Below, piece after piece: positions 21,933-54,139 of a DNA stretch of 54,139 bases. A program made the translations under genes and the position numbers. Position 1 is the stretch's first letter. The number at the start of each line of letters is the position of its first letter. The notes under the pieces are model-generated. The model had not been told where the DNA came from, made no database searches, and saw nothing but the letters and a program-made list of their open reading frames with translations. The stretch lies in contig JAGBFB010000025.1 of assembly GCA_017936665.1 (NCBI GenBank), forward strand, positions 1 through 54,139. Direction: 5' to 3'. This stretch comes from Spirochaetaceae bacterium. GTDB lineage: Bacteria; Spirochaetota; Spirochaetia; Treponematales; Treponemataceae.

Positions 21933-21956
21933 AAATTTATTTTTTGATATATTCAC

Positions 21957-22090
21957 ATTTGCAAGTAACGGAATTAGGTGAAAATCCTAAGCGGTCCCGC
22001 CACTGTAACGTTTTAGAAATCTAAATCCATTGGAAAATTCCGAGAAGGTTGATTTTGCAATTAGCGTAAGCCAGGAGACGACTTGTAAAT
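21957..22090 (+). ncRNA. Cobalamin riboswitch
   Basis: The conserved core is plain: a segment with GGTGAAAATCC, then GCGGTCCCGCCACTGTAAC, and the B12 box GTAAGCCAGGAGAC at 22067-22081. The closing stem P1 is formed by ATTTGCAAG (21957-21965) and CTTGTAAAT (22082-22090). The element lies upstream of the BtuB-like gene, whose binding site AGGAGG is at 22111-22116. No terminator hairpin follows, so control is probably at translation, repressing uptake when B12 is plentiful. Confidence 0.95.
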
Positions 22091-22121
22091 CTAACATTAA
22101 TACAAACCCGAGGAGGAATGT

Positions 22122-48098: not shown

Positions 48099-48506
48099 AT
48101 GGCAAAAAAAATTATTATGTTGTTCATCTGTATTTGGATAACGACATTTGCATTTTCTGATGAAAACTATGATATAACAAATATATCACAAAATCCAGAA
48201 GCAACTTTTAGATTATTTCCGACAAACAATATGTGGACATTTTTACAATTAAATACAATTACAGGTCAAATAAAACAGTTACATTTTGATACAAGTGGTG
48301 ACTCAAGGCTAAAATTGATAGTTAATGATGAAAATCTAGCAAAAAATTTACCTAATCTAAAAGGAAGATTTACTTTATATCCAACACAAAACATGTACAA
48401 TTTCATACTTTTAGATCAAGACAATGGAAGAACATGGCAAGTACAATGGAGTTTTGAAAAAGAAAATAGAATGATTCTACCAATAGAATTATTTGCAAAT
48501 TTTTAA
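48099..48506 (+). CDS. Hypothetical secreted protein with internal repeat
   Basis: This 135-residue protein has a signal peptide (residues 1-20, ending FAFS). Two copies of a motif of about 30 residues follow: FRLFPTNNMWTFLQLN near 37 and FTLYPTQNMYNFILLD near 91. The shared pattern is F-x-L-x-P-T-x-N-M-x-x-F, then L-D and a G before aromatic residues. The paired units suggest a small beta-rich fold. The binding site AAGGAGG is strong. The function is unknown. It lies just before the tracrRNA, convergent with it. Confidence 0.7.
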   Translation: MAKKIIMLFICIWITTFAFSDENYDITNISQNPEATFRLFPTNNMWTFLQLNTITGQIKQLHFDTSGDSRLKLIVNDENLAKNLPNLKGRFTLYPTQNMYNFILLDQDNGRTWQVQWSFEKENRMILPIELFANF

Positions 48507-48523
48507 TTATAGGTGTAAAATAC

Positions 48524-48600
48524 AAAAAAGCCCCACGGAGTACGCGAGGCAGTAGTCAAATGTGACTTCGGCATAAAAGCCTTATTGTGATTCGGTTAAC
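48524..48600 (-). ncRNA. tracrRNA of the type II-C CRISPR system
   Basis: On the minus strand a promoter TTGCAT (48632-48627), 17 bp, TATTAT (48609-48604) starts an RNA near 48597-48601. It opens with GTTAACCGAATCACAAT, which pairs with the first 15 bases of the repeat (minus strand, GTTGTGGTTCGGTTA) without a break, with two G-U pairs. Then come a short stem AAGGC/GCC, a stem AGTC/GACT and a terminator stem (48543-48550 with 48530-48537) ending in six T. About 77 nt long, it is transcribed away from cas9. Confidence 0.88.
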
Positions 48601-48662
48601 TAAATAATAACATGATACAAACAATAATGCAACAGTAAAATTTATTTTTTAGGAGAAAATAT

Positions 48663-51600
48663 ATGAAAAAATTAGGATTAGATTTAGGAACAAACTCTAT
48701 TGGTTGGGGAATCATTGATACAAATAATACAGAAAAACCAATTCAAAATTGTGGAGTTTACATATTCCCAGAAGGTGTAAAAATTGAAAAAGGAGTAGAA
48801 AGTTCAAAAGCTGCGGAAAGAACAGGTTATCGTTCTGCAAGAAGATTAAAATTTAGAAGAAAATTACGAAAATATGAAACTTTAAAAGTTCTAATAGAAT
48901 ATAATATGTGTCCTTTAACAATAGAAGAACTTGTAAAGTGGCGAAAAGAAAAAATTTATCCAAGCTCTCAAGAATTTATTAATTGGTATAGAACAGATGA
49001 AATCAATAATTGGGAACCATATTTTTTAAGAAAAAAATGCGTAGAAGAAAAAGCAGAAAAATATGAAATTGGTAGAGCCTTATACCATATTGCTCAAAGA
49101 CGCGGATTTTTAAGTAATCGAAAAGAAACAACAAAAGGCAATGAAAATGGAAATGTAAACACAGGAATATCTGAAATTTCAAAAGCAAAAGGCGATAAAA
49201 CACTTGGACAATATTTTTATGAATTAAAACAAAGTGGTGAAAAAGTAAGAGCAAAATATACTTCCCGAAAACAACATTACGAAGAAGAATTTAACAAAAT
49301 TTGTGAAGTTCAAAATATTCCAGAAAAATTAAAAGCAAAATTATACAATGCAATTTTCTTTCAAAGAAAACTAAAATCTCAAAAATTTCTTGTTGGAAAA
49401 TGTACTTTTGAAAAAAATAAACAACGCTGTCCAATTTCACATTTTGAATTTGAAGAATTTAGAATGTTACAATTTATTAACAGTATTAAAGTAAAAAGAA
49501 ATGAAGATGAAACTGACGACCAAAAATCTTCAAAATTAACAGCTTTTGAAAGAATTGAAATACAAGAATTATTTTTTAGAAAATCAAAACCAACTTTTAC
49601 ATTTAAAGATATAAAAGCAAAACTTTGTGGCAAAAAACATGAAGATTGGGAATTTAACTATATTGATGAAGCAAATATTGTTGGATGTCCTGTAAGTACA
49701 AGTCTAAAAGAAATATTTGGCGAAAATTGGAAAGATGTAAAAATTGGAAATTATGATATAAATGATATTTGGCATGTTTTATATGATTTTGATGATGATG
49801 ATAAGTTAAAAGAATTTGCAAAAGAAAAATTACTTTTATCAGAAGATGATGCTAAAAAGTTTTGCAAAATTACATTACAACAAGGTTATTCTAATTTAAG
49901 TCTAAAAGCTATAAGAAAGATTTTATATTTTTTAAGAGAAGGTCATCCTTATACAACATCTGCATTTTTAGCAAATATTCCAGAAATTATTGGAAAAGAA
50001 GTTTTTTCAAAAAATAAAGATGTAATCATTGATAAAATAGATGTAATTTCTAAAACAATAGGAAAAGTTAACTTACCATTAAAATTAGCAAATGATTGTC
50101 TTGATAAAATTGCAAAAGACAAGAATTTTGATTTTAGAACAGAAGATTGGAATAAAAACTTTATTGATACTTGTATAAAAGAATCTTTTGGTGAAAATAA
50201 ATGGGGAAAAGATTTTTCTCAAATAGAACAAGAAAAAATCAAAGCAGAAATTGAAAATAATGTTAATGAAACATTGAAAACAATGCCTACGGGAACTCAT
50301 CTTTCTATAAATAACTTTAAGTATCCGATGAAACATATTGATGAGCTTATCGAAGAATATTTAAGAGAGAATTTTGAAATTAAAAAGAATATTGATTTAT
50401 ATCATCCATCATATACTGATTCAAAATATGATATAAAACCAGCTGAAATTATTAACGGGAAAAAATATTTGAACACACCTAAAACATCAAGTATCAAAAA
50501 TCCTGTGGTAATGAGAGCTTTACATCAATTACGAAAATTGATTAATTATCTATTAAATACTGGCGAAATTGATGAGAATACACATATTCATATTGAATTA
50601 GCAAAAGAAGTTAATGATAAGAACTGGCGAAAAGCCATTGCTGACTTCCAAAAAGACAATGAAGCTAAAAATAAAGAATACAGAGAAAGAATTGAAGATG
50701 AAGCGAAAGCAAGTGGAATCTCACTTATTGTTACCGATGAATTAATAAAAAAATATCGTCTATGGGTAGAGCAAGATAAACAATGCCCTTATACAGGCAA
50801 GAAAATTAATTTTACAGCACTCTTTGGAAATAATCCTCAATTTGACTTTGAACATACAATACCTAGAAGTTTATCTTATGACGATTCTTTGGAAAATCTA
50901 ACTCTTTGTGATGTTGATTTTAATAGGAATGTAAAAAAGCAACAAATACCACATCAACTTGCAAATTACAAAGAAATTGCTCAAAGATTTGAAAGATATT
51001 ATGAAGAAAAAATTGATGATTGTTTAACAAGAATTGAAAAGTCTAGAACTCATGGACGATATATAGATCCTAGTATAAAAGATGCAATGATTGTTAAGCG
51101 ACATAAAGCAGAACTAGAATTAAGATATTATATTGGAAAATTAAAGCGTTTTAATTCAGAAGATGTAACAAAAAGATTTAAACATAGCCAATTAAACGAT
51201 ACAAGAACAATTACAAAGTTTGCAAAAGACTACCTAAAAACTGTTTTTGATTATGTAATGCCAATAAATGGAACAATTACAGATACATTTAAACATCAAT
51301 GGGGATTACTTGAAAAAGACGAGAAAAAAGACAGAAGTACAAATCTACATCACGTTGTAGATGCTTTAGTGGTAGCTTCTGTTGACAAGTGGAAGTATGA
51401 CTTGTTATGTAAATGTATTCATGAAAGTTCAGACGGAAGAACAATAAACCTACCAAAACCTTGGGAAAATTTTAGAAATGATGTTCTTTCTGCTACAGAA
51501 CTAATCATTCCTAAAATTGTTTCTAGTGATAATGCTTTAAAACAAACAAAAAAAATTATAAGAGATAGATATGGAAAACCAAAACTAAATAAAGATGGTC

Positions 51601-52448
51601 AAATCCAATATGTACAAGGTGATACAGCAAGGGGAAGTTTGCATAAAGATACTTTCTATGGTTGTATTATGACTCCACCCGAAAAAGACAAACCAAGTGA
51701 AAAAATCTATGTTCAAACAATTTCTTGTTCGGCTTTAGACAAATCTAAGGCAGAAAAAATTATTGATAAGGGGATAAAAAGAGCCTTTTTTGATAATCTT
51801 GATAAAAAAATACAAACTTTGCCAGATATACAACGAGATGGAATTAAATTACCATATCAAATAAACAACAGAGATGTGTATGCAAAAAAAGTTAGAATTG
51901 CAGCACATATTTCTAATCCAATTGAATTAAAAAAGCAGAAAGATGTTTCTAAAAAAGAGTACAAACAAAGTTATTATGTACAGAATGAAGAAAACTATTT
52001 TATTGCTTTGTATAGATACACGACAGAAAAGGGGAAGATTATAAGCGACTATATTGTATCCAACTTACTTAATTCTGTAAAAAATAAGCAAACTGGTGAT
52101 GTATTATATCCATTAAAAATAGAAAAAAATGGATTTGTTCTTTCTCTGTATAAGGTATTAAAAATAGGTCAAATTGTAATTTTTCAAGAAGATGAAAATG
52201 AAGATGTTTTATCTTTTCCAAAAGATAAATTGTTTTCACGGATTTATCGCGTAGCAGGAATCGCAAGTAAACCTGATGGAAGAGTCAACTTTGTTCATGC
52301 CATAATATCAGGTGCTTTTATAAAATCTAAAGAACAATTTTCCAATGGAATTGAAAAATATAAAAGAGTTTCAAATTCAAGTTTATTCTTTCTTGTTGAA
52401 GGTACAGATTTTAAGATTTCACCAACAGGAGAAATTATAAAACTATAA
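48663..52448 (+). CDS. cas9: Cas9 endonuclease, type II-C
   Basis: This 1261-residue RNA-guided nuclease cuts DNA matched by crRNA:tracrRNA. RuvC-I is LGLDLGTNSIGWG with D7. An Arg-rich bridge helix (RSARRLKFRRKLRK) follows near 60. The recognition lobe spans roughly 80-610. RuvC-II has E645 in HIELAKEVND. The HNH domain has FDFEHTIPRS with H731 and a CPYTG zinc-like entry. RuvC-III has NLHHVVDAL with H897 and D900. The C-terminal PAM-interacting part follows. All catalytic residues are present. The binding site is AGGAG. The absence of csn2 and cas4 places it in II-C. Confidence 0.97.
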   Translation: MKKLGLDLGTNSIGWGIIDTNNTEKPIQNCGVYIFPEGVKIEKGVESSKAAERTGYRSARRLKFRRKLRKYETLKVLIEYNMCPLTIEELVKWRKEKIYPSSQEFINWYRTDEINNWEPYFLRKKCVEEKAEKYEIGRALYHIAQRRGFLSNRKETTKGNENGNVNTGISEISKAKGDKTLGQYFYELKQSGEKVRAKYTSRKQHYEEEFNKICEVQNIPEKLKAKLYNAIFFQRKLKSQKFLVGKCTFEKNKQRCPISHFEFEEFRMLQFINSIKVKRNEDETDDQKSSKLTAFERIEIQELFFRKSKPTFTFKDIKAKLCGKKHEDWEFNYIDEANIVGCPVSTSLKEIFGENWKDVKIGNYDINDIWHVLYDFDDDDKLKEFAKEKLLLSEDDAKKFCKITLQQGYSNLSLKAIRKILYFLREGHPYTTSAFLANIPEIIGKEVFSKNKDVIIDKIDVISKTIGKVNLPLKLANDCLDKIAKDKNFDFRTEDWNKNFIDTCIKESFGENKWGKDFSQIEQEKIKAEIENNVNETLKTMPTGTHLSINNFKYPMKHIDELIEEYLRENFEIKKNIDLYHPSYTDSKYDIKPAEIINGKKYLNTPKTSSIKNPVVMRALHQLRKLINYLLNTGEIDENTHIHIELAKEVNDKNWRKAIADFQKDNEAKNKEYRERIEDEAKASGISLIVTDELIKKYRLWVEQDKQCPYTGKKINFTALFGNNPQFDFEHTIPRSLSYDDSLENLTLCDVDFNRNVKKQQIPHQLANYKEIAQRFERYYEEKIDDCLTRIEKSRTHGRYIDPSIKDAMIVKRHKAELELRYYIGKLKRFNSEDVTKRFKHSQLNDTRTITKFAKDYLKTVFDYVMPINGTITDTFKHQWGLLEKDEKKDRSTNLHHVVDALVVASVDKWKYDLLCKCIHESSDGRTINLPKPWENFRNDVLSATELIIPKIVSSDNALKQTKKIIRDRYGKPKLNKDGQIQYVQGDTARGSLHKDTFYGCIMTPPEKDKPSEKIYVQTISCSALDKSKAEKIIDKGIKRAFFDNLDKKIQTLPDIQRDGIKLPYQINNRDVYAKKVRIAAHISNPIELKKQKDVSKKEYKQSYYVQNEENYFIALYRYTTEKGKIISDYIVSNLLNSVKNKQTGDVLYPLKIEKNGFVLSLYKVLKIGQIVIFQEDENEDVLSFPKDKLFSRIYRVAGIASKPDGRVNFVHAIISGAFIKSKEQFSNGIEKYKRVSNSSLFFLVEGTDFKISPTGEIIKL

Positions 52449-52499
52449 AGAAAGTAAATCATACTGTTGAAAATTGATATTATTGTCGATAAAGACAGT

Positions 52500-53390
52500 A
52501 TGATTAAACGAACACTTTTTTTTGCAAATGCTGTTTGTTTAACAACAAGGAACAAACAGATTGTTATTAAAAACAAAGAATCTCAAGAAGAAAAGACAGT
52601 TCCCATAGAAGATATAGGATTTGTTGTTATTGAAAATCAGCAAATATATATTTCTATTCCTGCCATCACTGAACTTACAAAAAATAATGTAAGTGTAATA
52701 TTTTGTGATGAAAAACATATGCCTCTTTCAATGAACCTGCCTTTAGAATGTAATAGCATACAGAATCAACTTTTTTCAGTACAAATCGAATCAACTTTAC
52801 CCACAAAGAAGAATTGTTGGAAACAAATCATTGAACAAAAAATAAACAATCAAGCATTAGTATTAGAAAAATACGGACACAATCCAAATCACTTAAAAAA
52901 TATTTCTAAAGAAGTGAAAAGCGACGATTCAACAAATCGGGAAGGATTTGCTGCAAAAATCTATTGGAATAGTTTATTTGGAAAAAATTGGAGTAGAGAT
53001 AGATTTGGAGAATATCCAAATAATTACTTAAATTATGGTTATGCAATATTAAGAGCTGGAATGGCAAGAGCTATTGTAGGGTCAGGTTTATTACCTACAT
53101 TAGGTATACATCATCACAATAAATATGATGCTTATGCATTAGCAGATGACTTGATGGAACCTTACCGACCTTTTGTTGATGATATGGTTATTGAATATAT
53201 TGATAAAAATCCTAATAAATTAGAAATTGAACAAGATTTTAAATCTTTTATATTTTCTATAATGACTCGAGATACATTTATGAATAATAACAGACATCCT
53301 TTTATGGTAGCCTTAACATTTACAAGTTCTTCGTTAAGCAAAGTGTTTTTGGGTAAGACTAAAAATTTATCTCTACCAGAATTTACTTAG
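52500..53390 (+). CDS. cas1: Cas1 integrase, type II
   Basis: This 296-residue protein, with Cas2, inserts new spacers. The conserved metal residues are seen: E148 in NREGFAAKIYW, the His cluster 204-206 in GIHHHNKYDAYALADD, and E220 in LMEPYRPF. The start at ATG 52500 (MIKRTLFFANAV) matches the family; a TTG frame 11 codons upstream is possible. It lies 51 bp after cas9 and 3 bp before cas2. Confidence 0.95.
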   Translation: MIKRTLFFANAVCLTTRNKQIVIKNKESQEEKTVPIEDIGFVVIENQQIYISIPAITELTKNNVSVIFCDEKHMPLSMNLPLECNSIQNQLFSVQIESTLPTKKNCWKQIIEQKINNQALVLEKYGHNPNHLKNISKEVKSDDSTNREGFAAKIYWNSLFGKNWSRDRFGEYPNNYLNYGYAILRAGMARAIVGSGLLPTLGIHHHNKYDAYALADDLMEPYRPFVDDMVIEYIDKNPNKLEIEQDFKSFIFSIMTRDTFMNNNRHPFMVALTFTSSSLSKVFLGKTKNLSLPEFT

Positions 53391-53393
53391 AAT

Positions 53394-53732
53394 ATGAGTT
53401 ATACACGTTTTAACGCCTATAAGATTATGTGGTTATTCTGTCTATTTGATTTACCTACAAATACAAAATCACAAAGAAAAAGGGCTTCTGATTTTAGAAA
53501 ATTGTTAATTGAAGACGGTTACGAAATGATGCAATTTAGTGTTTATTACAGACATTGTGGAAGTTTAGAAAGTTGTGAAAGACACATAAAATATTTACAA
53601 AAGAATATTCCTTTTGAAGGTAAAATAAGTATATTAAAATTTACAGATAAACAATTTGGAGAAATTATTACATTCTTAGGTAAAAAAATTGAAAAAACAC
53701 CTTCAAAACCTATGCAATTTGAACTTTTTTAA
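53394..53732 (+). CDS. cas2: Cas2, type II
   Basis: This 112-residue protein is the scaffold partner of Cas1. The ferredoxin-like fold begins WLFCLFDLPTNTKSQRKRAS, with the conserved Asp in FDLP, and includes DGYEMMQFSVYYRHC. It ends 51 bp before the first repeat. No csn2 follows. Confidence 0.95.
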   Translation: MSYTRFNAYKIMWLFCLFDLPTNTKSQRKRASDFRKLLIEDGYEMMQFSVYYRHCGSLESCERHIKYLQKNIPFEGKISILKFTDKQFGEIITFLGKKIEKTPSKPMQFELF

Positions 53733-53783: not shown

Positions 53784-54139
53784 ATTATATCACAAAATTA
53801 AAAATAACCGAACCACAACTCTGGTGTATCTTCAATTTTTGTTTCAATTATTATATCACAAAATTAAAAATAACCGAACCACAACAGTTTAATCAACTTT
53901 GCAGTAAGTTCAGCAATTATATCACAAAATTAAAAATAACCGAACCACAACTCAAGTATGGAATGTACCGCCGTTCCGAATAATTATATCACAAAATTAA
54001 AAATAACCGAACCACAACTGTGGGAACAAAAATTAACGAAGCTCATCAATTATATCACAAAATTAAAAATAACCGAACCACAACTACAATGGATATTTAG
54101 GTAAACTTGAAAGAATTATATCACAAAATTAAAAATAAC
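53784..54139 (-). CRISPR. CRISPR array (runs past window edge)
   Basis: Five complete 36-bp repeats and one cut at the edge start at 53784, 53850, 53916, 53983, 54049 and 54115. All are identical over the visible bases. Spacers are 30, 30, 31, 30 and 30 bp and differ from one another. Read on the minus strand each repeat begins GTTGTGGTTCGG and ends GTGATATAAT. Pairing with the tracrRNA shows that the minus strand is the crRNA strand, so the array reads toward cas2. TGATATAAT is an extended -10 element, so each repeat can start a transcript a few bases into the adjacent spacer. Confidence 0.97.

What the first reader, a model, noticed from the sequence alone, without database searches (positions are those of the whole stretch)
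48524..48632. Compact tracrRNA gene opposite to cas9, with promoter, anti-repeat and terminator all readable
A TTGCAT-17-TATTAT promoter, a 15-nt unbroken anti-repeat match (48584-48598; two G-U pairs), two short stems and a terminator with six T fit into about 110 bp. It is unannotated in normal gene calling and defines the guide scaffold of this Cas9. At about 77 nt it is short for a tracrRNA.
Basis: partly seen in the sequence, partly recalled or inferred. Interest (0 to 1): 0.7.

Follow-up and report, generated by a model that had tools for sequence, protein, structure and literature searches.

The report
Guide-scaffold RNA (tracrRNA) beside cas9
The stretch is a real gene for the small RNA (tracrRNA) that lets this bacterium's Cas9 use its CRISPR guides; related bacteria carry the same RNA and change it in step with their CRISPR repeats, so it is a sound but ordinary part of a type II-C CRISPR system.

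Summary
Confirmed: a tracrRNA gene on the minus strand, about 48600-48524, divergent from cas9 in a type II-C locus (tracrRNA / cas9-cas1-cas2-array). The decisive evidence is comparative. TTGnnn-17-TAnnnT is present in the window and all 16 relatives. The anti-repeat changes in compensation with the 5' end of the CRISPR repeat 5 kb away (7 of 17 pairs with double changes over 10 distinct sets; 0 of 500 shuffles reach the covariation score). The terminator stem covaries. A covariance model hits only this place significantly in the 2.58 Mb genome (82 bits; next 22.5) and finds the RNA beside cas9 in four genera of the family and three other families of the class.

Two corrections. The predicted start (7 nt after the -10) is 48597, so the RNA is about 74 nt and begins with the anti-repeat. 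It is not unusually short: relatives give 71-78 nt, published mature tracrRNAs 62-75 nt.

Mechanism: the repeats carry their own -10 (TGATATAAT), so each crRNA probably starts inside its spacer, runs toward cas2 and pairs with this RNA over 14-15 bp, as in Campylobacter.

Verdict: new member of a known kind, low interest. Expression was not tested.

The parts
48604..48632 (-). tracrRNA promoter: TTGCAT (48632-48627), 17 nt, extended -10 TGT-TATTAT (-10 hexamer 48609-48604)
   Evidence: the same TTGnnn-17-TAnnnT geometry in all 17 sequences (window and 16 relatives), TGn before the -10 in 16 of 17. Weak by consensus alone.
48524..48597 (-). tracrRNA, predicted transcript of about 74 nt (77 nt if it starts at 48600)
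   Evidence: covariance model R1, 82.1 bits, E 1e-12, the only significant hit in the genome
48584..48598 (-). anti-repeat TAACCGAATCACAAT, pairs with repeat nt 1-15 (GTTGTGGTTCGGTTA), 2 G-U
   Evidence: compensatory changes with the repeat
48570..48581 (-). first stem-loop GGC-UUUUAU-GCC (nexus-like)
   Evidence: stem invariant in 15 aligned sequences
48554..48567 (-). second stem-loop AGUCA-CAUU-UGACU
   Evidence: 100% of cells paired
48524..48550 (-). intrinsic terminator: 8-bp stem 48550-48530, then six T 48529-48524
   Evidence: three pairs with changes on both sides in relatives
48663..52448 (+). cas9 (1261 aa); catalytic motifs readable: GLDLGTNS, IHIELAKE, FEHTIP, LHHVVDALV
   Evidence: (TIGR01865, 455.9 bits against cut-off 100)
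52467..53390 (+). cas1, type II (NMENI) form
   Evidence: TIGR03639, 297 bits against cut-off 120
53394..53732 (+). cas2
53784..54139 (-). CRISPR array (36-nt repeats, 30-31-nt spacers); crRNA sense is the minus strand (GTTGTGGTTCGGTTATTTTTAATTTTGTGATATAAT). The repeat ends with an extended -10, TGATATAAT. The array is cut by the contig end; the same repeats fill the end of contig C3 (89465-91942).

Best explanation
This is the tracrRNA gene of a type II-C CRISPR-Cas9 system in a spirochaete, probably of family Treponemataceae. An RNA of about 74 nt is transcribed away from cas9. Its first 14-15 nt (the anti-repeat) pair with the first 14-15 nt of the repeat part of each crRNA; two hairpins and the terminator hairpin then form the scaffold that Cas9 binds. 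Each repeat ends in a -10 element, so each crRNA is probably started within its own spacer and transcribed toward cas2. The crRNA would then need no 5' processing, and the tracrRNA 5' end is already at the anti-repeat, so only the crRNA 3' end must be cut, by RNase III or another nuclease. Shown by sequence and comparison: locus make-up, anti-repeat/repeat covariation, conserved promoter geometry, conserved fold and terminator, uniqueness in the genome. Inferred: transcription, exact ends, Cas9 binding and processing route.
For: Parts at the stated places. Anti-repeat score 33 against 17 for the next site in the window; random expectation about 0.05 per window. Promoter geometry in all 17 sequences. 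Hairpins paired in 99.1% of cells with double changes in the terminator stem. Repeat/anti-repeat duplex: 7 of 17 pairs with changes on both sides, 18 such cells, covariation score 0.325 against 0.124 shuffled (0/500), and it collapses when slid by one. Covariance model unique in the genome; found beside cas9 in four genera of the family and in three other families of the class whose Cas9 is 31-52% identical over the N-terminal segment. cas9-cas1-cas2 with no csn2 or cas4 in the operon. -10 motif at the 3' end of all 14 repeats inspected, an arrangement shown by experiment in C. jejuni (PMC3656092).
Against: No RNA data were available for this genome. The -35 box is weak. Rfam has no match, though a library miss says little about tracrRNAs of this lineage. 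Three hits in the family (G090, G170, G171) are orphan or relic copies without an intact cas9 beside them, and one class hit (G334) has no cas9 match nearby.
Confidence: 0.96

Rival explanations
1. The conserved hairpin is only the terminator or 5' leader of a neighbouring gene (or an attenuator for cas9), and the repeat match is a chance or relic repeat copy.
For: The element lies between two plus-strand genes; the window contains several AT-rich partial repeat matches.
Against: The terminator reads only on the minus strand. The anti-repeat covaries with the repeat. Fold and promoter are conserved on the minus strand in 17 sequences.
Confidence: 0.02
2. A scaRNA- or tracr-L-like regulator: the RNA, or a longer form of it, guides Cas9 to a partial match to repress cas9 or another host gene, in place of or beside its guide role.
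For: scaRNAs and tracrRNA-linked regulation have been described in type II systems (PMC6199352, PMC13431127), and the gene sits in the cas9 promoter region.
Against: The predicted start is already at the anti-repeat, leaving no spacer-like 5' part. No repeat-like segment was seen by eye upstream of it on that strand, and the region upstream of the -35 differs between relatives (by inspection). No target search was run.
Confidence: 0.03

Closest known systems
Type II-C CRISPR-Cas9 of Campylobacter jejuni (PMC3656092)
   Same: Three cas proteins only; each repeat ends in an extended -10 and starts its own crRNA; tracrRNA with one stretch of perfect complementarity to the repeat; short tracrRNA (about 62 nt processed).
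   Different: Different repeats and, from own knowledge, a different scaffold sequence; Cas9 here is 1261 aa against 984 aa for C. jejuni (own knowledge); not expressed or assayed here.
Neisseria meningitidis type II-C (Nme2 tracrRNA cluster of PMC7606464)
   Same: From memory, the Nme scaffold also begins ACAAUAAGGC...GCCG and ends in a G+C-rich terminator hairpin; Cas1 here is of the NMENI form.
   Different: Here the first stem is only GGC/GCC with a short loop, and an extra short stem (AGUC/GACU) sits before the terminator. The two RNAs were not compared by a tool.
Metagenomic II-C systems such as EH CRISPR-Cas9 (PMC10281378)
   Same: 36-bp repeats, 29-30-bp spacers, cas9-cas1-cas2 order, tracrRNA gene of similar size upstream of cas9 with predicted promoter and terminator.
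   Different: Other lineage; in EH the tracrRNA and guide were tested in cleavage assays.

Membership tests
tracrRNA | Anti-repeat complementary to the cognate CRISPR repeat, outside the array | tested here: met
   15/15 pairs at 48584-48598; covariation
tracrRNA | Located near cas9 | tested here: met
   30 nt between the -35 box and the cas9 start codon, divergent
tracrRNA | Stem-loops after the anti-repeat, ending in a Rho-independent terminator | tested here: met
tracrRNA | Transcribed, binds Cas9 and is needed for crRNA maturation or DNA cleavage | not testable with these tools
   needs RNA sequencing and cleavage assays
CRISPR-Cas type II-C | cas9, cas1, cas2 present; no csn2 or cas4 in the operon | tested here: met
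   the array follows cas2 directly. Absence elsewhere in the genome was not tested.
CRISPR-Cas type II-C | Promoter element inside each repeat, crRNA start in the spacer | tested here: inconclusive
   -10 sequence present in all 14 repeats inspected; transcription start not measured
CRISPR-Cas type II-C | Mutated extra (first, oldest) repeat at the array start (common, not universal: 60% in PMC12080349) | tested here: met
   unit C3:89399-89434 keeps the -10 but its duplex energy with the anti-repeat is -7.5 against -20.5 kcal/mol
Families of Rfam 15 | Score above a family's gathering cut-off | tested here: not met
   no tracrRNA match at 48400-48700 even at a relaxed threshold

The most novel reading that the evidence does not exclude
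Both guide-RNA strands of this lineage are born with finished 5' ends: the tracrRNA starts at the anti-repeat and the crRNA starts in the spacer, so the system may need no RNase III and no 5' trimming, a very lean guide pathway typical of these spirochaete Cas9 systems.
Probability: 0.3. Interest if true: 0.35.

Novelty: new member of a known kind. Interest (0 to 1): 0.2.

Why it matters
It gives the guide scaffold for a Cas9 clade of about 1260 aa for which no characterised member was found in the papers searched, with matched repeat/anti-repeat sets from 15 genomes. That is enough to build guides and test these enzymes. It also adds a clean natural series in which repeat and anti-repeat change together. 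It does not change the understanding of CRISPR systems.

Tried and rejected
Protospacers: exact search of 26-nt 3' ends of three of the five spacers in the window against 2.9 million viral contigs gave nothing, so no PAM could be derived. Array for the nearest relative L017 (Cas9 93% identical): its anti-repeat predicts a repeat beginning GTTGTGRTTTGGTTTC, but its partial genome (1.1 Mb) holds no such array, so the prediction stays untested. The promoter finder picked wrong boxes in several AT-rich sequences and was replaced by an anchored search. Chance as the source of the match: rejected. Literature searches for a characterised Treponema Cas9 with tracrRNA gave nothing relevant.

Full report
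What was checked. The finding names a tracrRNA gene at 48524-48632 on the minus strand, opposite to cas9. Reading the sequence gives: -35-like TTGCAT at 48632-48627; 17 nt; extended -10 TGT-TATTAT (hexamer 48609-48604); anti-repeat TAACCGAATCACAAT at 48598-48584; stem GGC/GCC at 48581-48570; stem at 48567-48554; an 8-bp G+C-rich terminator stem at 48550-48530; six T at 48529-48524. The predicted fold has exactly these three hairpins, and co-folding with the repeat gives a 15-bp duplex.

Chance. In AT-rich DNA with G-U allowed freely, fully paired 15-mers to the repeat start are expected about ten times per window. One with 13 Watson-Crick and 2 G-U pairs is expected about 0.05 times (1 in 2.15 million simulated positions), and the runner-up in the real window scores 17 against 33. 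In the whole genome the degenerate pattern TAACCGARTCACAAY hits without mismatch only here. By simple consensus scans the promoter is not above chance and the terminator is (1 against 0.2 expected), so conservation had to decide.

Locus. cas9 (48663-52448), cas1 of the type II/NMENI form (52467-53390) and cas2 (53394-53732) follow on the plus strand, then the array. No csn2 or cas4 lies in the operon, which makes it type II-C. The Cas9 catalytic motifs are readable. The array is cut by the contig end; the same repeat fills the end of contig C3, so there are about 43 repeats over the two contig ends, probably one array split by the assembly.

Comparative evidence. A Cas9 search in 195 genomes of the family gave 14 further full-length or nearly full-length relatives at 41-64% identity (one of them, G108, interrupted), plus fragments; a 93% relative came from a water-deer MAG. 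Each of those with its upstream region has the same RNA there. All 17 sequences (window and 16 relatives) have TTGnnn-17-TAnnnT, 16 with TGn before the -10, and the anti-repeat begins about where transcription should. In an alignment of 15 of them the three hairpins pair in 99.1% of cells, with double changes in the terminator stem. From the anchored -10 boxes the predicted lengths are 71-78 nt (computed), so this one (74 nt) is typical.

The strongest test is the duplex between two separate transcripts. Over seven distinct sets from the family, five of 17 pairs change on both sides. With three more sets from other families of the class, seven of 17 do, with 18 such cells and a covariation score of 0.325 against 0.124 in shuffles (0 of 500 reach it), and the signal collapses when the register is slid by one. 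The window itself carries informative changes: pair 10 is C-G instead of U-A, pair 12 G-C instead of A-U, pair 15 A-U instead of U-A. One caveat: the G062 repeat is 35 nt with a variable preceding base, and its first position was entered as G.

A covariance model built from 15 sequences finds only this site significantly in the genome (82.1 bits, E 1e-12; next 22.5 bits, E about 1). It finds 19 of 274 family genomes and four genomes of other families in a class-wide sample. Three of those four lie directly upstream of a cas9 that is 31-52% identical over the N-terminal segment, in the same divergent arrangement, with matching arrays. This is an independent test, because those families were not in the model.

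Mechanism. All 14 repeats inspected have a TAnnAT element within the last nine bases, in this window as a perfect extended -10 (TGATATAAT). In C. jejuni the same arrangement was shown to start each crRNA within its spacer, with one RNase III cut making the 3' end (PMC3656092). The first unit of the array (C3:89399-89434) keeps this -10 but has lost the tracrRNA-pairing part (-7.5 against -20.5 kcal/mol), as described for extra repeats in type II-C (PMC12080349). So the likely pathway is: per-repeat transcription toward cas2, pairing of the repeat 5' end with this RNA, binding by Cas9, trimming of the crRNA 3' end. Transcription and processing are inferred.

A small structural point. G001, G534 and G320, all distant from the window, have a 2-nt mismatch at repeat positions 9-10 (G320 also at 8), while the window's group has an unbroken duplex. 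The unbroken duplex therefore looks like a feature of this group.

Verdict. 'Short for a tracrRNA' is not supported: mature tracrRNAs of about 62 nt (C. jejuni, PMC3656092) and 75 nt (S. pyogenes, PMC3936727) are published. It is a new member of a known kind.

Noticed in passing
L107 10264-10339 (G171) and L106 5504-5577 (G170): Orphan tracrRNA genes with promoter, fold and terminator kept, beside a cas9 stub of 19-35 codons, with no further cas9 or cas1 match and no array within the 14 kb held: apparently deleted loci that kept the tracrRNA.
   Followed up: partly
L104 9785-9853 (G090): Relic tracrRNA without cas9: terminator T-run lost, first stem changed to GGU/ACC (a compensated change).
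   Followed up: no
G000 contig C3 89399-89434 (L048): Degenerate first repeat of the array keeps the -10 promoter half but has lost the tracrRNA-pairing half.
   Followed up: yes
L035-L047, L064-L068: A second Cas9 group in the same family (mostly about 1060-1120 aa, 31-37% identity over the N-terminal part) with repeats of the form GTTGCAGGTTGAC...TTATAAT, again with a -10-like repeat end; model R1 does not find its tracrRNA.
   Followed up: partly
L017: MAG RGIG8969 is titled Alphaproteobacteria but carries a 93% identical Cas9; given the spirochaete marker in the window's genome the label is doubtful.
   Followed up: no
21946-22100: Cobalamin riboswitch on the plus strand upstream of a plus-strand gene (77.3 bits).
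   Followed up: no
48099-48506: 135-aa protein with a signal-like N-terminus directly before the CRISPR locus; no match in Pfam, NCBIfam or PADLOC.
   Followed up: no
L031 / L061 (G108): cas9 interrupted by stops near its 3' end while tracrRNA and array are kept.
   Followed up: no
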